Of a DNA stretch of 64,000 nucleotides, positions 4,668 to 17,322 are shown in pieces (position 1 is the first letter of the stretch; the number at the start of each line of letters is the position of its first letter). The DNA is from Mycobacterium cookii (GTDB taxonomy: Bacteria; Actinomycetota; Actinomycetes; Mycobacteriales; Mycobacteriaceae). The notes beneath the pieces were generated by a model, which searched no databases, had not been told where the DNA came from, and saw only the letters and a list, made by a program, of their open reading frames with translations. The position numbers and the translations under genes are program-made. Where the stretch lies: contig NZ_AP022569.1 in the NCBI RefSeq assembly GCF_010727945.1, positions 2,914,001 through 2,978,000 of the forward strand, given 5' to 3'.

Positions 4668-6098
4668 GTGGCCAAGGCACGTTCGCAGTACCGCTGTTCG
4701 GAGTGCCGCCACGTCACCGCGAAATGGGTCGGCCGCTGCCTGGAGTGCGGCACCTGGGGTTCGGTCGACGAGGTGGCCGTGCTCAGCGCCGTGCGGGGCA
4801 GCACTCGCGCCGTCGTCAGCCCGTCCTCAGCCGCGGTACCGATCACCTCGATCGAGGCCGACGGAACCCGGCACTGCCCCACCGGCATCGACGAACTCGA
4901 CCGGGTGCTGGGCGGCGGCGTGGTGCCGGGCTCGGTGACGCTGCTCGCGGGTGACCCGGGGGTGGGTAAGTCCACGTTGCTACTCAAGGTTGCTCATCAG
5001 TGGGCGGCGTCGGGGCGGCGGGCGCTGTACGTGTCGGGTGAGGAGTCGCGCGGCCAGATTCGGATGCGCGCCGACCGGACCGGTTGCAGCGACGACGAGC
5101 TTTATCTGGCCGCCGAGTCGGATCTTCATGCGGTGCTTGGCCACATCGAGGCGGTGCAGCCCACCCTGGTAGTCGTCGACTCGGTGCAGACCATGTGCAG
5201 CACCGACACCGACGGCGTCACCGGCGGTGTCACGCAGGTCCGGGCCGTCACCGCCGCGCTGACCGCCGCGGCGAAAACCACTGGCGTGCCGCTGATCCTG
5301 GTCGGTCACGTCACCAAGGACGGGGCGATCGCCGGCCCTCGGTCGCTCGAGCATCTCGTCGACGTGGTGCTGCATTTCGAGGGTGATCGCAATTCGCTGC
5401 TGCGCATGGTTCGCGGCGTGAAGAATCGCTTCGGAGCGGCCGACGAAGTCGGTTGTTTTCTGTTGCAGGACAGCGGGATTGAAGGCGTTGCCGACGCGTC
5501 CGGGCTGTTTCTGGATCAGCGGCCGCAGCCGGTGTCGGGTACCGCGATCACCGTGACGCTCGACGGCAAGCGCCCGCTGGTCGGCGAGATCCAAGCGTTG
5601 CTGGCCGAGCCGTCGGGCAGCTCGCCGCGCCGCGCGGTCAGCGGCATCGACCACGCCCGGGCCGCGATGATCGCAGCGGTGCTGGAAAAGCACGCCCGGC
5701 TGAAAATCGCCGTCAACGACGTGTACCTGTCGACCGTGGGCGGTATGCGTCTGACCGACCCGTCGTCGGATCTGGCGGTTGCCGCAGCGCTGGCGTCGGC
5801 CTACGTGGATCTGCCGATGCCGGCGACGGCGGTGATGATCGGCGAAGTCGGATTGGCCGGAGATCTGCGGCGGGTCGGCGGCATGGAGCGGCGGCTGGCC
5901 GAGGCCGCCCGGCAGGGCTTCACCACCGCGCTGGTCCCGTCGGGTACCGACGCGGTGCCACCGGGCCTGCGGGTGTTGCAGGCGCCCACCATCGTCGCCG
6001 CGCTGGAGCACATGCTCAACCTCGGCGAGCACCGCAGCAAAGCTCCGACCCGACCACATCGACTGGACGCGCCGCCGACGGAGCACAATGACTGGTGA
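4668..6098 (+). CDS. radA: DNA repair protein RadA (Sms)
   Basis: RecA-related helicase-like protein that promotes branch migration in recombinational repair, 476 aa. Domain order: N-terminal C4 zinc finger (YRCSEC ... [10 protein letters not shown]), RecA-like ATPase with Walker [11 protein letters not shown] and the RadA-specific motif KNRFG ([15 protein letters not shown]), then a C-terminal Lon-protease-like domain without the catalytic serine ([26 protein letters not shown]). The GTG start gives the zinc finger at the very N-terminus. The stop overlaps the disA start, so radA-disA are coupled; DisA is known to interact with RadA in mycobacteria. Confidence 0.96.
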
Positions 6099-7210
6099 TG
6101 AGTACGGGGAAATCGAACACGAACGGATCGGCGCAGCCGGCACGTCCCACCCTGCGTGAAGCGGTGGCCCGGCTGGCGCCGGGAACCGCCCTGCGCGACG
6201 GCCTGGAACGCATCCTGCGCGGCCGGACCGGCGCCCTGATAGTCCTGGGCTACGACGACAGTGTCGAGGCCATCTGCGACGGCGGCTTCTCGCTCGACGT
6301 CCGGTACGCGCCGACCCGGCTGCGAGAACTCTGCAAGATGGACGGAGCGGTCGTGCTGTCCACCGACGGCAGCCGGATTCTGCGGGCCAACGTGCAGCTG
6401 GTGCCCGATCCGTCGATACCCACCGACGAATCCGGGACCCGGCACCGATCGGCCGAGCGGGCCGCCAGCCAGGTCGGCTATCCGGTGATCTCAGTCAGCC
6501 ACTCGATGAGCATCGTGACCGTCTACCTCAGCGGTGAGCGCCACGTGCTGGCCGACTCGTCGACCATCTTGTCGCGGGCCAATCAGGCCATCGCGACGCT
6601 GGAACGGTACAAGGCCCGGCTCGACGAGGTCAGCAGGCAGCTGTCGCGGGCGGAGATCGAGGACTTCGTGGCGCTGCGCGACGTGATGACGGTGGTGCAG
6701 CGGCTCGAGCTGGTCCGCCGGATCGGCGTGGAACTCGACAACGAGGTCGTCGAACTGGGCACCGACGGACGCCAGCTGCGGCTGCAGCTCGAAGAACTGC
6801 TCGGCGGCAACGACGCGTCGCGGGAGTTGATCGTGCGCGACTACCACGCCAACCCCGAGCCACTGTCCAAGGCCGAGCTCGCGGTCACACTCGAGGAGCT
6901 GGACGCGATGTCCGACGCCGAGCTGCTCGACTTCACCACGATGGCAAAGGTTTTCGGCTATCCGCCGACGGCGGAGGCCCAGGACTCGGCGGTCAGCTCG
7001 CGCGGCTACCGCGCCATGTCGGAGATCCCACGGCTGCAGTTCGCCCACGCCGACCGGCTGGTCCGCGAGTTCGGCTCGCTGCAGGGCCTGCTGGCGGCCA
7101 GCGCCGGCGACCTGGAGGCCGTCGAAGGGATCGGCGAAATCTGGGCCCGCCATGTGCGCGAGGGCCTCTCGCAATTGGCGGAGTCGACGATCGCCGACCC
7201 GCTCAGCTAG
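6098..7210 (+). CDS. disA: diadenylate cyclase DisA (DNA integrity scanning protein)
   Basis: Condenses two ATP to cyclic di-AMP; octameric, DNA-binding, 370 aa. The DAC domain shows both signatures: DGA in [10 protein letters not shown] and RHR in [12 protein letters not shown] helical linker and a C-terminal helix-hairpin-helix DNA-binding domain ([32 protein letters not shown]) follow. Start: the ATG at TGATG overlaps the radA stop by one base; a GTG three bases earlier is equally possible. The N-terminal ~15 residues are variable between species. It ends 2 bp from the convergent membrane-protein gene. Confidence 0.96.
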
Positions 7211-7212
7211 CC

Positions 7213-8007
7213 CTAGCCGCCGGGGGCGGGTGCCGGGCCGGGCAGTGGTCCGGGGGCCGGCGGGCCGGGCACTCCCGGTAGCTGCGGAGGCGCGGCGCCC
7301 GGAGCCAGCGGCGGCGCCAGGATGAACGGCACCGCCAGCGAACGTAGATTCCCCAGTTGCACGACGAGGTTGTAGGTGCCGGGCCCGATCGCCGGCCGCG
7401 GCAGCGGGCAATGTGGCGCCGAGCCCATACCGGTCCAGGTCACCGCGGTGGTCACCTGTTCGCCCGGCGCGAATGTCTTGACCAGGGTTTCGTTGGACGG
7501 CGCGCAGTCCAGGTTCGACCAGAGCCGCTTGTTGTCCAGCGAGTAGACGTAGGCGGCCAGCACCGCGGCGCCGACGTCGCGCTTGCAGGCCACCAGCCCG
7601 ATGTTCGTCACGACCATGACGAACTTCGGCTGGTCGCCGATCGCGTACTGGGGCAGGTTGGTCAGACCCTTGACGGCCAGCGTGGAGTCGGGGCAGTCGT
7701 CGCCTTCTTTGAGAATCGGCGGCGGCTGCACGGCGGCCGTCGGCGTCTCGGCGGGCTGGTCGGGGTTCTCCCCTGCCGGCGGCTCGACCTGCGTCTTGAC
7801 CTCAGGTCCCGGATTCTGCTGGCCTTGTGCGGCAGGCTTTTTGGCGGGGCCGGAGCTGTTGGCGCCGGCGCTGCTGCTCAACACGGCGACGATGATCGCG
7901 ACGACGACGGCGACCACGACGACCGCGAGGCCGATCGCCAATCCCCGGCGTCGCCAGTAGATCTCCGGCGGTAGCGGCCCCCGTGGTTCCAGATCCAGCA
8001 CATTCAC
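7213..8007 (-). CDS. conserved membrane-anchored protein (Rv3587c type)
   Basis: 264 aa protein of unknown function. A short basic cytoplasmic N-terminus (EPRGPLPPEIYWRRRG) is followed by one strongly hydrophobic helix (residues ~20-43, Val/Ala/Ile only), then a Pro/Gln-rich linker and an exported domain with three cysteines (EGDDCPDSTLAVKGL, GLVACKRDVG, NLDCAPSNETL) and a beta-sandwich look. The C-terminus is Pro/Gly-rich. The GTG start reproduces the length known in M. tuberculosis; an ATG at 8061 would add 18 residues and cannot be excluded because neither has a clear ribosome-binding site. Confidence 0.85.
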   Translation of the reverse strand: MNVLDLEPRGPLPPEIYWRRRGLAIGLAVVVVAVVVAIIVAVLSSSAGANSSGPAKKPAAQGQQNPGPEVKTQVEPPAGENPDQPAETPTAAVQPPPILKEGDDCPDSTLAVKGLTNLPQYAIGDQPKFVMVVTNIGLVACKRDVGAAVLAAYVYSLDNKRLWSNLDCAPSNETLVKTFAPGEQVTTAVTWTGMGSAPHCPLPRPAIGPGTYNLVVQLGNLRSLAVPFILAPPLAPGAAPPQLPGVPGPPAPGPLPGPAPAPGG

Positions 8008-8158
8008 ACGGTAAGCCCAGGTCACGTCGACTCGGGCGACATAACTCGGCGTGTCGCCCATTCAGCTGACGTGTCGATCGTGCTGCGCCGCGCACTGCCG
8101 CCTGGTCAAACGAGGTATCCGGCCGAACTCAGCACCCGGGCGCCGACTGATCAACTAT

Positions 8159-8178
8159 TTGATAAAATTTTCAATCAA
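8159..8178 (+). promoter_or_regulatory. putative ArsR operator overlapping the -10 of the hydrogenase-like operon
   Basis: TTGATAAAATTTTCAATCAA: perfect TTGAT/ATCAA arms around a 10-bp AT-rich centre that contains a strong -10 (TAAAAT, 8163-8168). A second perfect palindrome CAATCGATTG (8176-8185) abuts it. The block is strikingly A+T-rich for this genome and lies 35-55 bp before the arsR gene. ArsR-family repressors bind such imperfect repeats over their own promoter, so autorepression is inferred. No DosR box (GGGACT-N-AGTCCC type) is visible. Confidence 0.6.
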
Positions 8179-8213
8179 TCGATTGCAGGAACTAAGAAGC
8201 CTTCGGGAGGACA

Positions 8214-8555
8214 GTGGATTCGCAGCCGCTTTACAAGCTCAAAGGCGAGTTCTTCAAGACGCTCGGTCATCCGGCACGCGTCAGGATCTTGGAATTGCTG
8301 GCGGTGCACGACCAATCGGTGGGTGAGCTGGCGTTGGAGGTCGGGATCGAGTTGTCCAATTTGTCGCAGCAATTAGGGGTGCTGCGACGGGCGGGTGTGG
8401 TCAACGCTCGTAAGGACGGCAACAACGTGATCTATTCGATTGCGTCCCCAGACATCGCGGAGTTGCTCGCCGTGGCACGCAAGGTGTTGACGCGAATGCT
8501 GAGCGATCGGGTCGCCGTCTTGGACGACCTGCGCGCCGGCGGATCGTCGGAATAG
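8214..8555 (+). CDS. ArsR/SmtB-family transcriptional regulator (Rv0081 homologue)
   Basis: 113-aa winged-helix repressor. The sequence YKLKGEFFKTLGHPARVRILELLAVHD...LSNLSQQLGVLRRAGVVNARKDGNNVIYSIA is the complete ArsR fold: the recognition helix is SNLSQQLGVLRRAG and the wing is RKDGNNVIYS. The canonical metal-site ELCVCDL motif in the recognition helix is replaced by ELSNLSQQL with no cysteine, so it should not sense metals through that site. The GTG start has GGGAGG 3 nt upstream. It heads a seven-gene operon and closely resembles Rv0081, a hub regulator of the M. tuberculosis hypoxia response. Confidence 0.93.
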   Translation: MDSQPLYKLKGEFFKTLGHPARVRILELLAVHDQSVGELALEVGIELSNLSQQLGVLRRAGVVNARKDGNNVIYSIASPDIAELLAVARKVLTRMLSDRVAVLDDLRAGGSSE

Positions 8556-8559
8556 CACG

Positions 8560-9039
8560 ATGGGCTGGATCCGCAAGATCCTCCTGGTTGGCCGCGTCGT
8601 TGAGCCGGCAGACGCGAGGCCGAAACCATCGGTGAAACCACCTACGGGAATCCGCGGAACGCTGTCGATCCGCCACGTCGATGCAGGTTCGTGCAACGGC
8701 TGCGAGGTGGAGATCTCGGGCGCATTCGGGCCGGTGTACGACGCCGAAAGGTTCGGGACTCGGTTGGTGGCCTCACCCCGGCACGCCGACGCGCTGCTGG
8801 TGACCGGCGTTGTGACGCGCAATATGGTTGAGCCGCTGCGAAATACGCTAGATGCGACTCCGCGGCCGCGGGTGGTGATCGCGTGCGGGGACTGCGCGCT
8901 GAACCGAGGTGTTTTCGGGGACGCGTACGGCGTGGTCGGCGCGGTGGGTGAAGTGGTGCCTGTCGACGTTGAGATTCCGGGATGTCCGCCCACACCCAGT
9001 GACATCGTCGCGGGCTTGCGATCGGTGACGGGAAAGTGA
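8560..9039 (+). CDS. NuoB/HycG-like [4Fe-4S] subunit of a hydrogenase-related membrane complex (Rv0082 type)
   Basis: 159-aa small subunit of the group 4 hydrogenase/complex I family, carrying the proximal (N2-type) cluster. All four cluster ligands are present: Cys45 and Cys48 (SCNGCE), Cys109 or Cys112 (ACGDC) and Cys142 (GCPP). It would pass electrons at the interface with the large subunit. It starts 4 bp after arsR and overlaps the next gene by 4 bp. Unlike its partner large subunit, which has lost the nickel ligands, this subunit is intact, so an electron-transfer role remains plausible. Confidence 0.92.
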   Translation: MGWIRKILLVGRVVEPADARPKPSVKPPTGIRGTLSIRHVDAGSCNGCEVEISGAFGPVYDAERFGTRLVASPRHADALLVTGVVTRNMVEPLRNTLDATPRPRVVIACGDCALNRGVFGDAYGVVGAVGEVVPVDVEIPGCPPTPSDIVAGLRSVTGK

Positions 9040-11006
9040 CAGCGACCCTGTCATCGGCCTCGGGTCGTGCGCCAGACATACTGCGTCACAACGATTTCGG
9101 ATCTGCTCTGGCCGGAGCGCTGACGTCTCTTGTCGGAGTGGTCGGACTTTTGACAGGCATCGCTGGGTTGTTTGGCGCGATGCGGTCGGTGCACCTCGGC
9201 TGGCTGCTGCCGTTGTCAGGAGTTTGGCTCGAACTCGATCCGCTTGGTGGCTTCTTCGTGGCGATCACTAGTGCCGTCGCGATTCCGGTGGGCATCTATT
9301 CGATCGGCTACGCGCGGCACATGAGCTCAGTAGCACGGGCAGTGCTGCCGCTGTTCGTCGCAGCGATGCTTCTGGTTCCCGCCGCGGGGTCGGTCACGTC
9401 CTTCCTCCTCGCGTGGGAGCTGATGGCAATCGCGTCGCTGGTGCTTGTGCTGTCTGATCACGATTCCCCCGAAGTGCGTTCGGCCGGCCTGCTGTACGCG
9501 GTGATGACGCAGCTCGGATTTGTGGCGATCTTGGTCGGGCTGATGCTGCTGTCGGCCGCTGGTCACGCGGACCGGCTCACACAACTGACTCGGGTGCCCG
9601 AAAGCACACGCACCGCCGTATTTTTGCTCACTGTTGCAGGCTTCGGCTCGAAAGCGGGCTTGCTGCCGCTGCACGCGTGGCTCCCGCGCGCCCATCCGGA
9701 GGCGCCGAGTCCCGTGTCGGCGTTGATGAGCGCGGCGATGGTCAATATGGGTGTCTACGGCATCGTCCGGTTCGACCTGCAGCTGCTTGGTCCGGGTCCG
9801 CGTTCGTGGGGGCTGGTTCTGTTGATCATCGGCGGATTGTCCGCGCTCTACGGAGTTCTACAGGCCTGTGTCGCAACCGATCTCAAGCGGCTGCTGGCCT
9901 ATTCGACGAGCGAGAACATGGGGCTGATCACGCTGGCGCTGGGTGCGGCCACGCTATTTGCCGGCTCCGGCATGCGGGCGGCCGCGACCGTCGCGATGAC
10001 CGCAGCGATGCTGCACCTGGCTGCACATGCGGCATTCAAGTGCCTTGGTTTCCTCGGCGCGGGATCCGTTCTGGCGACCACCGGGCTGAGAAACCTAGAC
10101 CTACTCGGGGGATTGGCCCGTCGGATGCCCGTGACCACGGCGCTGTTCGGGATCGCCGCCCTCGGAGCGTCGGGGCTGCCGATGGGGGCCGGTTTTGTCG
10201 GCGAATGGCTGCTGGTCCAATCGCTGATTCACACCACGCCCGGCCACCAAACTCTCGTCGCGCTCGCGACGCCGTTGGCGGTCGGCGTAGTCGCGCTGAC
10301 CACGGGCCTGGGTGTTGCTGCGATGGTCAAGGCATTCGGCATCGGATTCCTCGCCCGGCCACGTTCATCGGCTGCCAGTGACGCGCGTGAGGCACCGGCC
10401 AGCATGCTCGCAGGCATGACAATTGCCGCGCTCGCATGCCTGCTGTTGGCGGTGGTACCCGTGGTGGTAGCGCCCGCGCTGCGAAGGGTGCTGGAGGTGT
10501 TGCCCGCGACCGCACAGAGTGAGTTCACCGGCCTCGGGACGATGGTGCGCCTGCCTGGACTGCAGGGATCGATCGCCCCCGGCGTGATCGCCGCAGGCCT
10601 GGCAGTGGCTGTGATAGCGGTCGTCGTGTTAACGCACTGGCGCTCGCGCCATCGCCCTGAGTCGGCCACCCTGCCGCTATGGGCCTGCGGCGCCGAGGAT
10701 CTCACCCCGCGGATGCAGTACACCGCGACATCGTTCGCCGAGCCGCTGCAACGGGTGTTCCACGACGTCTTGCGTCTGGACACCGACATCGAGATCACGC
10801 CTCACGAGGAGTCGCGTTACTTGGCCTTGCACGTCGCCTACCGGGCCAGGATCGTCGACGCGTTCGAAGAGTGGCTCTATAAGCCAGTGATTCGCCTGGT
10901 AACGATGGCCGCCACGGTGGTGCAACGCGTTCACACCGGAAGCGTTCACGTCTACCTCGCATACGGTGCACTGAGCGTGTTGATCATGCTGGTGGTAGCC
11001 AGATGA
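9036..11006 (+). CDS. NuoL/MrpA/HyfB-like antiporter-type membrane subunit (Rv0083 type)
   Basis: 656-aa integral membrane protein of the proton-translocating quinone oxidoreductase family. About 14-16 hydrophobic helices are evident. Family hallmarks include GSKAGLLPLHAWLPRAHPEAPSPVSALMSAAMV (helix with conserved Lys and His), DLKRLLAYSTSENMGLI and HAAFKCLGFLGAGSV. A C-terminal soluble/amphipathic tail and a final helix (residues ~630-655) resemble HyfB/HycC. GTG start overlaps the preceding stop by 4 bp. Expected to be one of the ion-pumping subunits of the complex encoded here. Confidence 0.92.
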   Translation: MTATLSSASGRAPDILRHNDFGSALAGALTSLVGVVGLLTGIAGLFGAMRSVHLGWLLPLSGVWLELDPLGGFFVAITSAVAIPVGIYSIGYARHMSSVARAVLPLFVAAMLLVPAAGSVTSFLLAWELMAIASLVLVLSDHDSPEVRSAGLLYAVMTQLGFVAILVGLMLLSAAGHADRLTQLTRVPESTRTAVFLLTVAGFGSKAGLLPLHAWLPRAHPEAPSPVSALMSAAMVNMGVYGIVRFDLQLLGPGPRSWGLVLLIIGGLSALYGVLQACVATDLKRLLAYSTSENMGLITLALGAATLFAGSGMRAAATVAMTAAMLHLAAHAAFKCLGFLGAGSVLATTGLRNLDLLGGLARRMPVTTALFGIAALGASGLPMGAGFVGEWLLVQSLIHTTPGHQTLVALATPLAVGVVALTTGLGVAAMVKAFGIGFLARPRSSAASDAREAPASMLAGMTIAALACLLLAVVPVVVAPALRRVLEVLPATAQSEFTGLGTMVRLPGLQGSIAPGVIAAGLAVAVIAVVVLTHWRSRHRPESATLPLWACGAEDLTPRMQYTATSFAEPLQRVFHDVLRLDTDIEITPHEESRYLALHVAYRARIVDAFEEWLYKPVIRLVTMAATVVQRVHTGSVHVYLAYGALSVLIMLVVAR

Positions 11007-11959
11007 ACGAGATGTCCTATCTCGCAAGCACCGTGCAGCTTCTCGCGGTCACAATTGGCGCTCCGCTCGTAATCGGCGTGACCCGGCAGGTACGGGCACG
11101 CTTCGAAGGCCGAGCCGGTGGCGGGGTGCTGCAGCCGTGGCGCGACTTACGCAAACTGCTTGGCAAACAACAGATCAGACCGCTGGGCACGACGGTGGTG
11201 TTCGCGGCGGCACCGGTAGTTGTCGCGGGCACGATGGTGCTGATCGCCGTCATCGCGCCCTTAATTGCGACGGGTTCCCCGCTGGATTCGAGCGCCGACC
11301 TGTTCGCTGTCGTGGGTCTGCTGTTTCTGGGTACTGTCGCGTCGACGCTGGCCGGCATTGACACCGGCACATCATTCGGCGGCATGGGCGCAAGCCGCGA
11401 GATCACCATTGCGGCACTGGTTGAACCCACGATCCTGCTGGCGGTCTTTGCGCTCTCAATTCCGGCGGGATCAGCGAATCTCGGTGCGCTGGTTGCTAAT
11501 ACGCTCGGACACCCCGGCCACGTGGTGTCGGTGGCCGGCGTGCTCGCATTGGCCGCCCTGGTGATCGTCATCATCGCCGAAACCGGGCGGTTGCCTGTTG
11601 ACAACCCGGCCACGCACCTCGAGCTGACCATGGTGCATGAAGCGATGGTGCTCGAGTACGCCGGTCCACGGCTGGCGCTGGTCGAGTGGGCCGCCGCGAT
11701 GCGGCTCACGATTCTGCTGGCGCTGCTGGCGAATCTGTTCATGCCGTGGGGAATCGCGGGCCTGCGCCCGGGCGGCGTGGATGTCGCGATCGGCCTTGCA
11801 GCGATCGTCGTCAAGGTGGCGGTGCTGGCGGTGCTGCTCGCGACGGCCGAGGTATTCATGGCGAAACTGCGGCTATTCCGGGTGCCCGAACTGCTCGCCG
11901 GCTCATTTCTGCTCGCCCTGCTGTCGGTGACAGCCGCGAACTTCTTCTCTGGGGTGTGA
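11003..11959 (+). CDS. hycD: NuoH/HycD-like membrane anchor subunit
   Basis: 318-aa membrane protein of the complex I subunit 1 family (Rv0084 type) that connects the hydrophilic FeS/large subunit module with the membrane arm. Family features: R-x-x-GG-V-LQPW-DL-KLL in the first cytoplasmic loop (RAGGGVLQPWRDLRKLL), the acidic E-x-G-R-x-P-x-D-N-P-x-x-H-x-E-L motif (AETGRLPVDNPATHLELTMVHEAM). Around eight helices. ATG overlaps the upstream stop by 4 bp (ATGA). A MIRU-like repeat separates it from the next subunit. Confidence 0.93.
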   Translation: MNEMSYLASTVQLLAVTIGAPLVIGVTRQVRARFEGRAGGGVLQPWRDLRKLLGKQQIRPLGTTVVFAAAPVVVAGTMVLIAVIAPLIATGSPLDSSADLFAVVGLLFLGTVASTLAGIDTGTSFGGMGASREITIAALVEPTILLAVFALSIPAGSANLGALVANTLGHPGHVVSVAGVLALAALVIVIIAETGRLPVDNPATHLELTMVHEAMVLEYAGPRLALVEWAAAMRLTILLALLANLFMPWGIAGLRPGGVDVAIGLAAIVVKVAVLAVLLATAEVFMAKLRLFRVPELLAGSFLLALLSVTAANFFSGV

Positions 11960-11967
11960 GGAGATCG

Positions 11968-12047
11968 ATGACCCACACCGATGACGATGCAGGGCGAAGC
12001 GATGAGGTGGGCGCATTCCCCGCTTGTGGGGGAGGGCAGTGCACATG
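11968..12047 (+). repeat. MIRU-like element with a 26-codon ORF bridging hycD and hycP
   Basis: The element core reads GATGACGATGCAGGGCGAAG followed by CGATGAGGTGGG and CCGCTTGTGGGGGAG, the same family as at 62889 and 41634. It opens with ATGACC 8 nt after the hycD stop (GTGAGGAG before it acts as ribosome-binding site) and encodes [20 protein letters not shown] plus six more residues. Its TGA overlaps the hycP ATG (ATGA). Published M. tuberculosis MIRUs show the same start/stop overlap with flanking genes. Confidence 0.72.
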
Positions 12048-12707
12048 AGCGACGCGGACTTTGCGACCCTCATAAGTTTCGCCGCCGGCGGACTGATGCT
12101 CACGTCGGTGCTCGTCGTGTGGCGGCGCCGCCTGCGCGCTATCGTGCGCCTGCTGGCGTGTCAGGGCGTCGCGCTGACCGCAATCCCGATCGTGCGCGGG
12201 ATCCACGACGATGACACTGCGCTGATCCTCATCGGCGTCGCAATACTTGCCCTGCGTACGGCGATCCTGCCGTGGCTGCTGGCCCGAGCGGTGGCCGCCG
12301 AGCGACAAGACCAGCGCGAGGCGACACCGTTGGTGAACACCGCCAGTTCGCTGCTGGTCACCGCGCTGCTCACGATCATCGCCCTCGCGGTCTCCCGGCC
12401 AGTCGCGGACCTGGAACCAAGCGCCACCGCCGAAGCCGTCCCTGCCGCCTTCGCGGTGGTGTTCATCGCGCTGTTCGTAATGACGACGCGACGTCACGCG
12501 GTTTCGCAGGCCGCGGGATTTCTCATGCTGGACAACGGGATTGCCGCGGTCGCATTTCTGCTGACAGCGGGTGTGCCGATGATCGTCGAACTAGGAGCGT
12601 CGCTGGATGTGCTGTTCGCGGTGATCGTGATCGGGGTGCTTACTGGCCGACTGCGCCGCACATTCGGCGCTGCCGACCTCGACGCGCTGCGGGAGTTGCA
12701 CGACTGA
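12045..12707 (+). CDS. hycP: HyfE/HycP-like membrane subunit
   Basis: 220-aa integral membrane protein (Rv0085 type), related to HyfE and to NuoK/MrpC-like subunits. Predicted seven helices; loops are short. The ATG ([16 protein letters not shown]) was chosen because it overlaps the stop of the repeat-encoded mini-ORF (ATGA) and GGGGGAGG lies ~10 nt upstream; a longer in-frame reading begins inside the repeat and is not supported. The stop overlaps the next gene (TGATG). Confidence 0.87.
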
Positions 12708-14176
12708 TGACCGCTCTGCTGCTCGCACCGATCCTTGCCCCCCTCGCCGCGTCGATCGCCAACCTGATCGCGGGGTGGCGACGTGCCACTATGACGCTAG
12801 CGCTGCTGTCGGCCGTCACCGTGCTTACCTGCGGGACGGTGCTCGCATTCCGGCTGCACTCGACCACGTACCTCGCGCTGGACGGGTTGCTGCGCGCCGA
12901 CGCGCTCACCGCAACGATGCTGATCGTCATTGGGGTGGTCGGGACGCTCACCAGCTGGGCGAGCATCGGCTATATCGACGCCGAACTCGCACACGGCCAC
13001 ACCGACGCGCGTGGAGCGCGGTTGTACGGGTTCCTGACGCAGGCATTCCTGGCCGCAATGGTTGTTGCATTGTGCGCCAACAATATTGGTGTGATCTGGG
13101 TGGCGATCGAGGCCACCACGATCGCCACCGCCTTCCTGGTCGGCCATCGCCGCACCCGCAGCGCCTTAGAGGCGACATGGAAATACGTCGTGATCTGCTC
13201 GGTCGGTATCGCGATGGCCTTCCTCGGCACGGTGCTGTTGTACTTCGCCGCTCGCCACGCCGGCGCCCCCGCCGAAAACGGGTTGAACCTCGATATGCTG
13301 GCGGCCCACGCCCGCAGCCTCGATCCTGGCGTCGCGCGTCTGGCCGGTGGACTACTGCTGATCGGATACGGCGCCAAGGCCGGCCTGTTCCCGTTTCACA
13401 CGTGGCTGGCCGATGCCCACAGCCAGGCGCCTGCGCCGGTCTCCGCGCTCATGAGCGGGGTGTTGCTGTCGGTCGCATTCACAGTGCTGATCCGAATAAA
13501 GCCCATAATCGACGCAGCTACCGGACCCGCATTCATGCGCGCCGGACTGCTGGTGGTCGGGTTGGCGACATTGTTGATCGCAGTCCTGATGTTGACCGTC
13601 ACGCCGGACATCAAACGAATGCTGGCCTATTCGTCGATGGAGAACATGGGCCTGATCGCGATCACGGCCGCTGCCGGGACGACCCTGGCGATAACGGCGC
13701 TGCTGCTGCACATACTGGCACATGGCCTCGGCAAAACGGTCCTGTTCCTGGCCGGCGGCCAACTACAAGCCGCACACGATTCGACCGCGATCGCTGACAT
13801 CACCGGCGTACTGCGGCGCTCGCGGCTTATTGGCGTGTCGTTCGCAGTCGGCCTGATCGTGCTACTGGGCCTGCCACCATTCGCGATATTCGCCAGCGAA
13901 TTGGCGATTGCCCGCTCGCTGGCGGACGCGCGCCTCGCCTGGGCACTCGCGTCGGCGTTGTTGCTGCTCGCAATCGGCTTCGCCGCGCTGGCACGCAACT
14001 CAGGCCGGATGCTGTTAGGCGCCCCAACCACGGCTGACCCCTCGATCACCGTGCCGGTGACCGTCGCTGCAGCATTGTCCGTCGGCATGGCCGCCTCGCT
14101 CGCGCTCGGCGTCAGCGCCGGGCCTCTGACAAATCTATTAAGTACTGCCGCAAGGAATGTCGGAGCGATGCCGTGA
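12707..14176 (+). CDS. hycQ: NuoN/M/HyfF-like antiporter-type membrane subunit
   Basis: 489-aa membrane protein (Rv0086 type), second antiporter-like subunit of the complex. Visible hallmarks: ANNIGVIWVAIEATTIATAFLVG (conserved Glu in helix 5), YGAKAGLFPFHTWLADAHSQAPAPVSALMSG (Lys plus His/broken helix), DIKRMLAYSSMENMGLI and LAHGLGKTVLFLAGG. These Glu/Lys positions are those used for ion translocation in complex I. It starts one base before the end of hycP and overlaps hycE by 4 bp (GTGA). Confidence 0.92.
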   Translation: MTALLLAPILAPLAASIANLIAGWRRATMTLALLSAVTVLTCGTVLAFRLHSTTYLALDGLLRADALTATMLIVIGVVGTLTSWASIGYIDAELAHGHTDARGARLYGFLTQAFLAAMVVALCANNIGVIWVAIEATTIATAFLVGHRRTRSALEATWKYVVICSVGIAMAFLGTVLLYFAARHAGAPAENGLNLDMLAAHARSLDPGVARLAGGLLLIGYGAKAGLFPFHTWLADAHSQAPAPVSALMSGVLLSVAFTVLIRIKPIIDAATGPAFMRAGLLVVGLATLLIAVLMLTVTPDIKRMLAYSSMENMGLIAITAAAGTTLAITALLLHILAHGLGKTVLFLAGGQLQAAHDSTAIADITGVLRRSRLIGVSFAVGLIVLLGLPPFAIFASELAIARSLADARLAWALASALLLLAIGFAALARNSGRMLLGAPTTADPSITVPVTVAAALSVGMAASLALGVSAGPLTNLLSTAARNVGAMP

Positions 14177-15663
14177 CTCCAAACAGGTTGCGTCACAGCT
14201 TATCAGCGTCGGAACTGCCGAGAATGACCGAAGAACTGCTGGCGAACGGTCTCCGTCTCGGACTGGTGGCCGCGCATGACGACGACGACACGCTGCGGAT
14301 CGTCTACCTTTTCCTCGCCAGCCGGCCCGAACGCAGGATCGAGCTGGAATATCAAGTACCGAAAGATGATCCGGTAATTCCGTCGCTGAGTCACCTGTCC
14401 TTTCCGCTGGGCCGGTTCGAGCGGGAAATGGCTGACCTGTACGGAATTCGACCGATCGGCCATCCACAGCCACGCCGTCTGGTGCGCCACGCCCACTGGC
14501 CCGAGGATTGGCATCCGATGCGCAACCACGCCGGGCCACCACCGGGTTTCGAGCACACTGGACGGTTCCCGTTTCTCGTTGTGGAAGGACCTGGGGTGTA
14601 CGAAATCCCCGTCGGGCCCGTTCACGCCGGGTTGATCGAGCCCGGGCACTTCCGCTTCTCCGTCGTCGGCGAGACCGTGCTGCGCCTCAAAGCGCGGCTG
14701 TGGTTCGTCCACCGGGGCATCGAGAAACTCTTCGCCGGCCGCGGCGCCGGCGAAGCGGTCGAACTCGCGGAACGCATCAGCGGCGACACGTCAGCCGCGC
14801 ACGCGCTGGCGCACAGCCTTGCTGTCGAAGACGCCCTCGGAATCGAGTTGCCCGACGCGGCACACCGGATGCGGGCCCTGCTCATCGAACTCGAACGTCT
14901 CTACAATCACGCCGCCGATCTCGGTGCACTCGCCAACGACGTCGGCTTCGCCCTGGCCAATGCGCACGCCCAACGCATCCGCGAGCAGCTCCTGCGGCTC
15001 AACGCCGAGGTGACCGGGCACCGGCTGCTACGCGGGGCGATCCGACCGGGCGCGGTGACGCTACAAGCCCTGCCCGATGCAGCCAAGCTGCGATCCATCG
15101 CGGGTGACCTGGCCGAGGTCGCCACGCTTACCCTCGCGAATACCGTGGTGCACGACCGGTTCACCGGCACCGCGGTTCTCACGTCCGAGGATGCGCGCGC
15201 TCTCGGATGCCTGGGGTACGTGGCGCGAGCCAGCGGTGTGCGCACCGACGCACGTCTTGAACACCCCACCACTGCCCTGCCCGTGATTGAGGCCGGAGCG
15301 AGCGCCGGTGACGTACTGTCCCGCTACACCGTGCGTCGAGACGAATTCGCAGCGTCTGCTGAGCTTGCCGCACACCTGATTGAATCCCACACCGGCCCAA
15401 CCGCATACGTCGCTGAGATGCCCTCGACGACCGGCACACGCAGCGGCGTCGGCATCTCAGAAGGATGGCGCGGCACCATCGTGCATCGCGTCGAAATCGA
15501 CGGAACCCCAGGATCGCAGGCTCGTCTCACCCGCGCCAAAGTCGTCGACCCGTCCTGGTTCAACTGGCCGGCGCTGCCCGTCGCGATCGCAGACACCATC
15601 GTTCCCGACTTCCCGCTGGCCAACAAGAGCTTCAACCAGTCCTATGCCGGCAACGACTTATGA
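14173..15663 (+). CDS. hycE: HycE-like NuoCD-fused large subunit lacking Ni-ligand cysteines
   Basis: 496 aa (Rv0087 type). The N-terminal ~150 residues are a NuoC-like domain (FEREMADLYGIRPIGHPQPRRLV), fused to a NuoD/HycE-like domain. In true [NiFe] hydrogenases the two metal motifs are RxCGxC and DPCxxC; here they read RISGDT (in AERISGDTSAAHALAHSL) and DPSWFN (in KVVDPSWFNWPAL). The whole protein has a single cysteine, in ALGCLG. It therefore cannot hold a standard NiFe centre and belongs with the 'energy-converting hydrogenase related' proteins. The annotated formate hydrogenlyase role of the M. tuberculosis homologue is not supported by this sequence. Last gene of the operon. Confidence 0.92.
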   Translation: MTPNRLRHSLSASELPRMTEELLANGLRLGLVAAHDDDDTLRIVYLFLASRPERRIELEYQVPKDDPVIPSLSHLSFPLGRFEREMADLYGIRPIGHPQPRRLVRHAHWPEDWHPMRNHAGPPPGFEHTGRFPFLVVEGPGVYEIPVGPVHAGLIEPGHFRFSVVGETVLRLKARLWFVHRGIEKLFAGRGAGEAVELAERISGDTSAAHALAHSLAVEDALGIELPDAAHRMRALLIELERLYNHAADLGALANDVGFALANAHAQRIREQLLRLNAEVTGHRLLRGAIRPGAVTLQALPDAAKLRSIAGDLAEVATLTLANTVVHDRFTGTAVLTSEDARALGCLGYVARASGVRTDARLEHPTTALPVIEAGASAGDVLSRYTVRRDEFAASAELAAHLIESHTGPTAYVAEMPSTTGTRSGVGISEGWRGTIVHRVEIDGTPGSQARLTRAKVVDPSWFNWPALPVAIADTIVPDFPLANKSFNQSYAGNDL

Positions 15664-15779: not shown

Positions 15780-16415
15780 CTACGACTCCCGTGGCGGCTC
15801 GTCTCCGACATCGCCGATCACGTTGCGCAGCGCCACTTTGCCGTCCGCCAGGTGATAGGTGGCGCCCACGATCGCCAGCTCGCCGGCGGCGACCTTCTCG
15901 GCGATCGTCGTGGAGCGCGACACCAGCTGGGTGCCGGTCTCGACCACGTGGCGCGCCTCGAATTCGTCCGGCCGTTTCAGACCTTCGCGGCGGCCCAGCA
16001 GGATCGACGGAGTCACCCGCTCGACCACGTCGCGCACATACCCACCGGGCAGCACGCCATCGTCGAGGGCGGTCAGCGTGGCCTTCACCGCGCCGCAGCT
16101 GTCGTGGCCGAGGATCACGATCAGGGGCACGCCGAGCACAGCGACCGCGAACTCGATCGAGCCCAGCACCGCGGAGTCGATCACATGCCCGGCGGTCCGG
16201 ACCACGAACATGTCACCCAGGCCCTGATCGAAGATCAGCTCGGCGGCCACCCGGCTGTCGCCACAGCCGAACAGCGCCACTGTCGGCTTCTGCCCCGCGG
16301 CCAGGCTGGCCCGATGCTCGACACTTTGGCTCGGGTGCTCGGGCTGGCCGGTGACGAACCGCTCGTTACCCTCTTTGAGTGACTTCCAGGCGCTCACCGG
16401 ATTCGTATTAGGCAT
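15780..16415 (-). CDS. canB: beta-carbonic anhydrase
   Basis: Zinc enzyme interconverting CO2 and bicarbonate, 211 aa (Rv3588c type). Zinc and catalytic residues are visible: Cys-x-Asp-x-Arg in FGCGDSRVAAE, and His-x-x-Cys in GHDSCGAV. The ATG giving MPNTNPVSAWKSLKEGNERF matches the family start. Its start codon overlaps the divergent mutY start codon within the tetramer CATG, so each gene's promoter and leader must lie within the other's coding sequence. It ends next to the hydrogenase-like operon, which in M. tuberculosis lies elsewhere. Confidence 0.95.
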   Translation of the reverse strand: MPNTNPVSAWKSLKEGNERFVTGQPEHPSQSVEHRASLAAGQKPTVALFGCGDSRVAAELIFDQGLGDMFVVRTAGHVIDSAVLGSIEFAVAVLGVPLIVILGHDSCGAVKATLTALDDGVLPGGYVRDVVERVTPSILLGRREGLKRPDEFEARHVVETGTQLVSRSTTIAEKVAAGELAIVGATYHLADGKVALRNVIGDVGDEPPRES

Positions 16416-17322
16416 GGCGCATATTCTGCCGCACGGGGCGTCGAAGTCCCTTTTAACGCCGCATGAACTTCTCGACTGGTACGAGCTGAGCCGGCGCGAC
16501 CTGCCGTGGCGGAATCCCGAGGTGACACCGTGGCAGATCCTGGTCAGCGAGTTCATGCTGCAGCAGACGCCGGTGTCGCGGGTGGTGCCGATTTGGTTGG
16601 ACTGGGTCGCGCGGTGGCCGACGCCATCGGCCACGGCGGCGGCCGGGCCGGGCGAGATCGTGCGGGCCTGGGGGAAGCTGGGTTACCCGCGGCGCGCCAA
16701 ACGCCTGCACGAGTGCGCGACCGTGATCGCCCGCGACCACGACGACGTCGTTCCCGACGATGTCGAGGTTCTGCTGACGCTGCCCGGGATCGGCGCCTAC
16801 ACCGCACGGGCGGTGGCGTGCTTCGCCTACCAGCAGGCGGTGCCGGTGGTGGACACCAACGTGCGCCGCGTCGTGGCCCGGGTCGTCCACGGCCGGGCCG
16901 ACGCGGCCTCGGCCGCTACCGTCCGCGATCACGCGGACGTCGCCGCGTTGCTGCCCGATGACGATTCGGCACACCGGTTTTCAGCGGCGCTCATGGAGCT
17001 GGGTGCGACGGTGTGCACCGCGCGTTCGCCGCGGTGCGGGCTGTGCCCGCTCAGCGTGTGCCAGTGGCGGCAGGCCGGCTTTCCGCCCGCGGACGGCCCG
17101 GCGCGTAAACCGCAGGGCTACGCCGGCACCGACCGGCAGGTCCGAGGCCGGCTGATGGATGTGTTGCGGGCCAACGAGCTACCGGTCACCCGTGCCCAGC
17201 TCGACGTAGCGTGGACGACCGACGTCGTGCAACGGGACCGGGCGCTGGACTCGCTGCTCGCCGACGGCCTGGTGACCAAGACCAGCGACGGCCGGTTCGC
17301 GTTGCTCGGCGAAGAGGGCTAA
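16414..17322 (+). CDS. mutY: A/G-specific adenine DNA glycosylase MutY
   Basis: Removes adenine mispaired with 8-oxoguanine, 302 aa. Helix-hairpin-helix with catalytic Asp: TLPGIGAYTARAVACFAYQQAVPVVDTNVRRV; the early catalytic Glu lies in SEFMLQQT. The [4Fe-4S] cluster ligands follow as C-x6-C-x2-C-x5-C (CTARSPRCGLCPLSVC). The C-terminal winged part replaces the usual NUDIX-like domain and is short, as in M. tuberculosis. ATG overlaps the canB start; the 3' end overlaps the convergent hydrolase gene by 4 bp. Confidence 0.95.
   Translation: MAHILPHGASKSLLTPHELLDWYELSRRDLPWRNPEVTPWQILVSEFMLQQTPVSRVVPIWLDWVARWPTPSATAAAGPGEIVRAWGKLGYPRRAKRLHECATVIARDHDDVVPDDVEVLLTLPGIGAYTARAVACFAYQQAVPVVDTNVRRVVARVVHGRADAASAATVRDHADVAALLPDDDSAHRFSAALMELGATVCTARSPRCGLCPLSVCQWRQAGFPPADGPARKPQGYAGTDRQVRGRLMDVLRANELPVTRAQLDVAWTTDVVQRDRALDSLLADGLVTKTSDGRFALLGEEG

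What the first reader, a model, noticed from the sequence alone, without database searches (positions are those of the whole stretch)
8214..15663. Hydrogenase-like membrane complex that has lost its nickel site
Seen: seven genes packed with 4-bp overlaps, an ArsR regulator, an intact FeS subunit (Cys45, Cys48, Cys109/112, Cys142), a NuoH-like anchor, two antiporter-type subunits with the ion-path Lys/Glu residues, a HyfE-like subunit and a NuoCD-fused large subunit. In the last, RxCGxC has become RISGDT and DPCxxC has become DPSWFN, and the whole protein has one cysteine. Known: such proteins occur in 'energy-converting hydrogenase related' complexes; the M. tuberculosis homologue is annotated as formate hydrogenlyase. 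No formate dehydrogenase, ferredoxin-like subunit or hydrogenase maturation gene is nearby. Inference: an ion pump driven by an unknown redox or conformational partner.
Basis: partly seen in the sequence, partly recalled or inferred. Interest (0 to 1): 0.78.

Follow-up and report, generated by a model that had tools for sequence, protein, structure and literature searches.

The report
Hydrogenase-like ion pump without nickel site
A mycobacterial gene cluster of the type labelled formate hydrogenlyase encodes an intact membrane complex that has lost its hydrogen-making site, and some distant relatives have also lost their last iron-sulfur site, which suggests that this family of ion-moving machines may not need redox chemistry.

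Summary
In detail: window 8214-15663 holds an intact ArsR, FeS small, HyfB, NuoH-type, HyfE, HyfF and large-subunit operon, and the large subunit has no [NiFe] ligands. Correction: the second lost motif is not DPSWFN but the extreme C-terminus (NQSYAGNDL). The complex belongs to the known 'energy-converting hydrogenase related' (Ehr) class; print already places the M. tuberculosis homologue there (PMC6728331). The only molybdopterin-family gene found in this genome lies with complex I, so no formate dehydrogenase of that type was found. The residues that replaced cysteine (S203, S490, G493) are nearly fixed in Ehr across phyla, so this is not decay. New here: a well-supported clade, mostly Patescibacteria, has also lost 3-4 of the 4 ligands of the [4Fe-4S] cluster (12 of 12 typed loci; 120 of 120 listed database relatives), yet keeps the pocket and nearly all ion-path residues; 6 of 18 loci lie beside ATP synthase genes (0 of 80 other loci). 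I favour a non-redox, Mrp-like ion translocator gated by its cytosolic arm (0.45). Mycobacteria keep the cluster (119 of 119), and print proposes redox coupling for Ehr, so a one-cluster redox pump is the main rival (0.38). No model was obtained; nothing was assayed.

The parts
8214..8555 (+). ArsR-family regulator, 113 aa, no cysteine; closest solved structure is Rv0081
   Evidence: (6jmi, E 4e-51); an ArsR was also found in 19 of 98 relative loci
8560..9039 (+). NuoB/HycG-like small subunit, 159 aa, four [4Fe-4S] ligands C45, C48, C112, C142 plus conserved C109; no ferredoxin domain
   Evidence: CCCC and C109 in 119 of 119 listed relatives
9036..11006 (+). HyfB-type antiporter-like subunit, 656 aa, E128, K206, H331, K335, E390
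11003..11959 (+). NuoH/HycD-type membrane anchor, 318 aa
   Evidence: (HycD of 7z0s, E 7e-44)
12045..12707 (+). HyfE-like membrane subunit, 220 aa from ATG
   Evidence: (hydrogenase 4 membrane subunit, below its cut-off)
12707..14176 (+). HyfF-type antiporter-like subunit, 489 aa from ATG, E138, K227, H342, K346, E401 (numbered from 12698, the start used)
14173..15663 (+). Large subunit, NuoC and NuoD domains fused, 496 aa; former Ni-Fe ligand positions S203, T206, S490, G493

Best explanation
Shown by sequence: an intact Ehr complex that lacks the ligands of a [NiFe] hydrogenase and, in this genome, a molybdopterin formate dehydrogenase partner. Inferred mechanism: the membrane arm (HyfB, HyfF, HyfE, NuoH-type) is an ion-translocating module of the Mrp/complex I kind that exchanges H+ for another cation. 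The cytosolic arm no longer has electron transfer as its main task. The former Ni-Fe pocket, now with Ser/Thr/Asp/Tyr and closed by the protein's own C-terminus, binds a ligand or acts as a switch that gates the channels through the NuoH-type subunit. In mycobacteria the single [4Fe-4S] cluster is kept as a sensor or structural part of that gate. The confidence is for this non-redox mechanism; that it is not a hydrogenase I hold about 0.97 certain.
For: Between FeS-less-clade (18 rows) and FeS-keeping Ehr large subunits (57 rows, window included) 87 positions are at least 85% conserved in both, all with the same residue, the pocket included; none conserved in both differ. In 14 of 14 loci with at most one cluster Cys, HyfB E128/K206/H331/K335/E390, HyfF E138/K227/H342/K346 and NuoH R132/E141/E207/E218 are kept. 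Small subunit of the FeS-less clade: 12 of 12 typed loci and 120 of 120 listed database relatives lack at least three of the four Cys, with the replacements conserved. ATP synthase genes in 6 of 18 loci of that clade, 0 of 2 of a second loss and 0 of 78 others. Ferredoxin-type motifs accompany 7 of 8 four-Cys forms but 12 of 74 forms without these Cys.
Against: The window's own clade keeps the cluster: 119 of 119 listed relatives have all four ligands, which suggests a task for it. The FeS-less forms are another clade, so their way of working need not be that of the window. HyfF E401 is Lys in 3 of 14 FeS-less loci and NuoH E193 is Asp in 1. Some Ehr keep a ferredoxin domain. PMC6349859 (passages) suspects that Ehr couple redox reactions to charge translocation and proposes a formate dehydrogenase-Ehr complex in other phyla. 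One remaining Cys and Asp in most FeS-less forms could still hold some metal. No transport was measured and no ligand of the pocket is known.
Confidence: 0.45

Rival explanations
1. One-cluster redox pump: a soluble donor such as a ferredoxin docks directly on the small subunit where relatives carry a ferredoxin domain; electrons pass through the single [4Fe-4S] cluster to an unknown acceptor in the remodelled pocket, and this drives ion pumping.
For: All four ligands in 119 of 119 listed mycobacterial-type relatives and in 66 of 84 typed loci; relatives with a fused or separate ferredoxin domain exist; published suggestion of redox coupling for Ehr (PMC6349859, passages).
Against: The pocket is equally conserved where the cluster ligands are gone; no donor gene was recognised in the operon, though 8 of 13 recurrent neighbour clusters were not scanned for families.
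Confidence: 0.38
2. Short complex I: the pocket reduces or oxidises menaquinone, with electrons entering at the single cluster.
For: Sequence kinship to NuoD, NuoB and NuoH; the genus uses menaquinone (recalled).
Against: The tyrosine of NuoD that is known to bind quinone (recalled) is glycine 204 here, aligned with the own NuoD, and G204 is invariant in 48 aligned relatives; the anchor is nearer to HycD (E 7e-44) than to the best complex I NuoH chain listed (E 7e-08 and weaker); no NADH- or ferredoxin-binding module in the operon.
Confidence: 0.1
3. Cryptic hydrogenase or formate hydrogenlyase, with metal held by other residues or maturation genes from elsewhere.
For: The genome has HypD and other [NiFe] hydrogenases; annotation as formate hydrogenlyase in several papers.
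Against: No Cys at any of the four ligand positions and one Cys in the whole chain; one PF00384 match in the genome, beside complex I; in Nitrospira moscoviensis Ehr expression did not rise with H2 (PMC12342949, passage).
Confidence: 0.03
4. A decaying remnant without function.
For: Catalytic ligands lost; found in only 45 of 148 sampled genomes of the genus; one genome (G558) has an in-frame stop in the large subunit.
Against: Seven open genes with high third-position GC; SGDT in 117 of 120 and SYAGNDL in 118 of 120 listed relatives, own included; hycP and hycQ of M. tuberculosis reported as needed for optimal growth (PMC2799521, passage).
Confidence: 0.02

Closest known systems
Ehr (energy-converting hydrogenase related) complexes, including M. 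tuberculosis Rv0082-Rv0087 (hyc) with Rv0081
   Same: NuoB/NuoD-like arm without Ni-Fe ligands, antiporter-like subunits, NuoH-type anchor; print assigns the M. tuberculosis locus to EHR (PMC6728331, passage)
   Different: Nothing essential. The window shows where the second motif really lies, and sits at a junction that is closed in 29 other genomes of the genus examined
E. coli formate hydrogenlyase (7z0s; HycC, D, E, G)
   Same: Best solved-structure match for large, small, HyfB-type and NuoH-type subunits
   Different: No Ni-Fe cysteines, no ferredoxin-like subunit, no formate dehydrogenase, an additional HyfF and HyfE
Respiratory complex I
   Same: Core of NuoB, NuoCD, NuoH and NuoL/M/N-type subunits
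   Different: No NADH module, no NuoI, quinone-site tyrosine replaced; the genome has a separate complex I
Mrp antiporters and Mbh/Mbx/Mbs of Thermococcales
   Same: Antiporter-type subunits (Mbh and Mrp chains among the matches); Mbx/Mbs is recalled as a relative with an altered Ni-Fe site
   Different: Mrp has no NuoB/NuoD-like arm (recalled); Mbx/Mbs was not compared residue by residue here

Membership tests
Ehr complexes | NuoD/HycE-like large subunit without the four Ni-Fe cysteines | tested here: met
   S203, T206, S490, G493 at the four positions
Ehr complexes | antiporter-like subunits and NuoH-type anchor in one operon | tested here: met
Ehr complexes | falls with other Ehr in a tree | tested here: met
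   clade of 16 rows with Nitrospira, Rokubacteria, Acidobacteria and Actinomycetota forms, support 99/96
Group 4 [NiFe] hydrogenase | CxxC near the N-terminal end of the NuoD domain and CxxC at the C-terminus | tested here: not met
Formate hydrogenlyase | molybdopterin formate dehydrogenase partner in the genome | tested here: not met
   one PF00384 match in the genome, at 4.94 Mb beside complex I NuoD and NuoB, taken as NuoG
Respiratory complex I | quinone-site tyrosine of NuoD | tested here: not met
   G204 in its place; the role of the tyrosine is recalled
Mrp-type cation/H+ antiporter (works like) | conserved Lys/Glu ion-path residues | tested here: met
Mrp-type cation/H+ antiporter (works like) | measured cation/H+ exchange | not testable with these tools
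   needs vesicle assays

The most novel reading that the evidence does not exclude
The Ehr branch of the complex I superfamily consists of ion translocators whose work does not require redox chemistry. The Patescibacteria-type clade, with neither Ni-Fe nor [4Fe-4S] ligands and in part next to ATP synthase genes, is the stripped-down form; the mycobacterial complex is the same machine with its last cluster kept as a gate sensor.
Probability: 0.4. Interest if true: 0.9.

Novelty: new member of a known kind. Interest (0 to 1): 0.58.

Why it matters
Ehr complexes occur from archaea to mycobacteria, and print calls their function unknown. A natural set of relatives in which the Ni-Fe ligands, the ferredoxin feed or the last iron-sulfur ligands are missing while the ion path stays intact makes that question testable: if the stripped forms move ions, the membrane arm of complex I relatives can be run and gated without electrons, which bears on how complex I couples. 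It also corrects a label that leads readers to expect formate or hydrogen metabolism from this operon.

Tried and rejected
Considered and rejected: a frameshift or sequencing error hiding the motifs (open genes; SGDT in 117 of 120 listed relatives); DPSWFN as the second motif; a molybdopterin formate dehydrogenase elsewhere in the genome; a complex I-type quinone site. A DosR-type box: 0 matches in the window with up to 3 mismatches, consensus recalled. Carbonic anhydrase as a recurrent neighbour: 0 matches in the 98 relative loci. A conserved partner gene: one search gave 13 neighbour clusters in four or more loci; three are ATP synthase genes, one is ferredoxin-like, one is an MFS transporter, and the other 8 were not scanned for families (some may be shadow frames), so a partner is not excluded.

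Limits. Small subunits were typed in 84 of 98 loci (an early notebook entry says 77). Of the 18 loci counted as the FeS-less clade, 15 are placed by the quick tree and L065, L066, L068 by similarity alone; 6 have no typed small subunit. One Rokubacteria locus near the window's clade (L083) has Pro at one ligand position. Trees used 92 of 111 rows and 66 of 111, near-duplicates, fragments and some long or distant rows left out, motif columns blanked. In one search, 19 of 111 rows fitted no group, the 85% threshold was my choice, and the four-Cys group of 17 includes 4 HycE-type rows. Ferredoxin motifs were sought by a strict pattern that misses degenerate domains; 3 of the 12 hits among 74 are weak (L069, L119, L138); the Fisher value for this used 11 of 74 and is not cited. 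The ATP synthase queries came from one locus of the same clade (L072), many loci have short flanks, and relatedness was not corrected for. A4 was built from the clade itself, and its listed relatives include members of the query.

Structure models were not obtained: the queue was full; one job (FeS-less small subunit) was accepted and unfinished.
Full report
What is there. The window lies at 2.914-2.978 Mb of a one-contig 5.32-Mb genome, G000. Between DisA (6095-7210), a minus-strand gene (7213-8061) and a minus-strand carbonic anhydrase (15780-16634) stand seven open genes: ArsR, NuoB-like small subunit, HyfB, NuoH/HycD type, HyfE, HyfF, and a large subunit with NuoC and NuoD domains in one chain. 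The ArsR matches Rv0081 (6jmi, E 4e-51). Three of six junctions are 4-bp overlaps; hyfE follows an 85-bp gap.

The lost site, corrected. Aligned to HycE (7z0s_E) RVCGICGFAH became RISGDTSAAH, and SLDPCYSC became SFNQSYAG at the very end of the protein; DPSWFN is a different stretch upstream. The ligand positions are S203, T206, S490 and G493; H210 is kept. In 24 aligned relatives S203, G204, D205, T206, H210, S490 and G493 are invariant. Among 120 listed relatives, own included, SGDT stands in 117 and SYAGNDL in 118.

Not a formate hydrogenlyase. The genome (99.98% complete by the tool's figure) has one PF00384 match, at 4.94 Mb beside the complex I NuoD and NuoB matches, so taken as NuoG. Other [NiFe]-hydrogenase loci and HypD lie elsewhere; the argument in print for M. 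tuberculosis, that maturation genes are missing, would therefore not hold here, but the loss of ligands does.

Already known. Marreiros et al. 2013 on Ehr was not read; I saw it only as a cited reference. PMC6728331 (passage) assigns the M. [quoted passage not shown] PMC12342949 and PMC10284858 (passages) say that the function of Ehr is unknown; [quoted passage not shown] PMC6349859 (passages) suspects redox-coupled charge translocation. Papers that call the locus formate hydrogenlyase or a putative [NiFe] hydrogenase include PMC6901956, PMC5484546 and PMC3087520 (passages); the last lists Rv0082-Rv0087 as horizontally acquired. Searches for Ehr forms without iron-sulfur ligands or beside ATP synthase in Patescibacteria found no paper that describes them (31, 0 and 0 papers; of the 31, 20 were listed and I looked at passages in 4), in the held open library only.

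Relatives. A family sample (151 genomes), a phylum sample (396 genomes) and one scan of named genomes (best 80 of 576) gave 98 loci with flanks, L043-L140, each with the large subunit and as much of the operon as the contig holds. By the four ligand positions they include four-Cys forms without a C-terminal extension (Bacillota, Brocadia, a Planctomycetota record, some Actinomycetota), SGD/SYxG Ehr forms in many phyla including archaea, and rarer types. Of 84 typed small subunits 66 keep all four cluster ligands, 4 have lost one or two, 14 keep at most one.

The iron-sulfur-less clade. Twelve of those 14, with six untyped loci, belong together; 13 of them were in the careful tree and form a clade with support 99/99. 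By record title they include Daviesbacteria, Levybacteria, Staskawiczbacteria, Magasanikbacteria and Moraniibacteriota, a Thermoleophilia MAG, some untitled bacteria, and two genomes of the window's own phylum (G425, G383). Ligands became T/D-C-D-D or S/T-E-G-D. The other two (L056, L060; D-D-D-A or S) are a separate change; the fewest changes on that tree are 2, and 4 for the Ni-Fe cysteines, direction not inferred. Of the 120 best database relatives of this small subunit 70 are TCDD, 42 DCDD, 4 SCDD, 2 DCDN, 1 TEDD and 1 SEDD. Small subunits are 55-72% identical to the first row, with D137 in place of the last ligand invariant in 12 of 12, so the change is maintained. In the 13 genomes reached through these loci the NuoD-family matches lie in one region each; a UbiA-family gene was found in 5 of the 13, and in G425 and G383, so quinones are not excluded. 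These are incomplete MAGs.

Why this bears on the window. The window's protein sits in another clade of 16 rows (99/96), of which 13 have a typed small subunit, all CCCC. Yet between FeS-less-clade (18) and FeS-keeping Ehr (57) large subunits, all 87 positions at least 85% conserved in both carry the same residue, pocket included. Compared with four-Cys rows, the sharp Ehr-specific changes are the ligands themselves, S203, S490 and G493, plus D256, P460 and N488. Ion-path residues are kept in 14 of 14 FeS-less loci, with two exceptions: HyfF E401 is Lys in 3, NuoH E193 is Asp in 1. A pocket that is equally conserved with and without the neighbouring cluster is unlikely to have electron exchange with it as its shared task. 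ATP synthase genes flank the operon in 6 of 18 loci of the clade, 0 of 2 of the second loss and 0 of 78 others (Fisher p 1.8e-5 for 6 of 18 against 0 of 80, not corrected for relatedness).

Against it. The mycobacterial type keeps all four ligands and C109 in 119 of 119 listed; some Ehr still carry a ferredoxin domain; print suspects redox coupling. So I put 0.45 on the gated, non-redox translocator and 0.38 on a one-cluster redox pump.

Distribution and site. In the genus 45 of 148 sampled genomes, own included, have the large subunit. In 29 other genomes the aligned parts of the 7213-8061 gene and of the carbonic anhydrase are 2-346 bp apart in 28 and 1104 bp in one (a partial match); in the window the operon stands between them. 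In three of them (G532, G563, G565) the Ehr large subunit lies on the far side of the carbonic anhydrase, beyond a frame that by eye reads like MutY. The operon has thus been inserted or moved in this lineage.

Noticed in passing
L090, L093, L123, L126, L128, L134, L139; also L028, L031, L032, L035, L038, L053: Relatives with all four Ni-Fe cysteines but ending directly after the C-terminal CxxC, so without an extension to cleave; the first seven have a small subunit with a fused ferredoxin-type domain. They may be true hydrogenases close to Ehr.
   Followed up: partly
L062, L063, L065, L072, L103, L127: ATP synthase genes lie within the flanks of the FeS-less Ehr operon in six loci of the clade.
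   Followed up: partly
L056 and L060: A second, separate type without cluster ligands, large-subunit motif EGIS or EGVA.
   Followed up: partly
window 7213-8061 and 15780-16634: The operon splits a junction that is closed in 29 other genomes of the genus; in three genomes the Ehr lies on the other side of the carbonic anhydrase.
   Followed up: partly
L059 16396-18690: In another genome of the genus (G085) a Na+/H+ exchanger with a TrkA_C domain lies directly upstream of the ArsR-Ehr operon.
   Followed up: no
19 of the loci L043-L140: An ArsR regulator stands near the Ehr operon in 19 of 98 loci from several phyla, many without cysteine; what it senses is open.
   Followed up: partly
window 8150-8190: An AT-rich stretch with short palindromes read by eye (ATCAACTATTTGAT, CAATCGATTG) upstream of arsR; the repeat search did not report them.
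   Followed up: no
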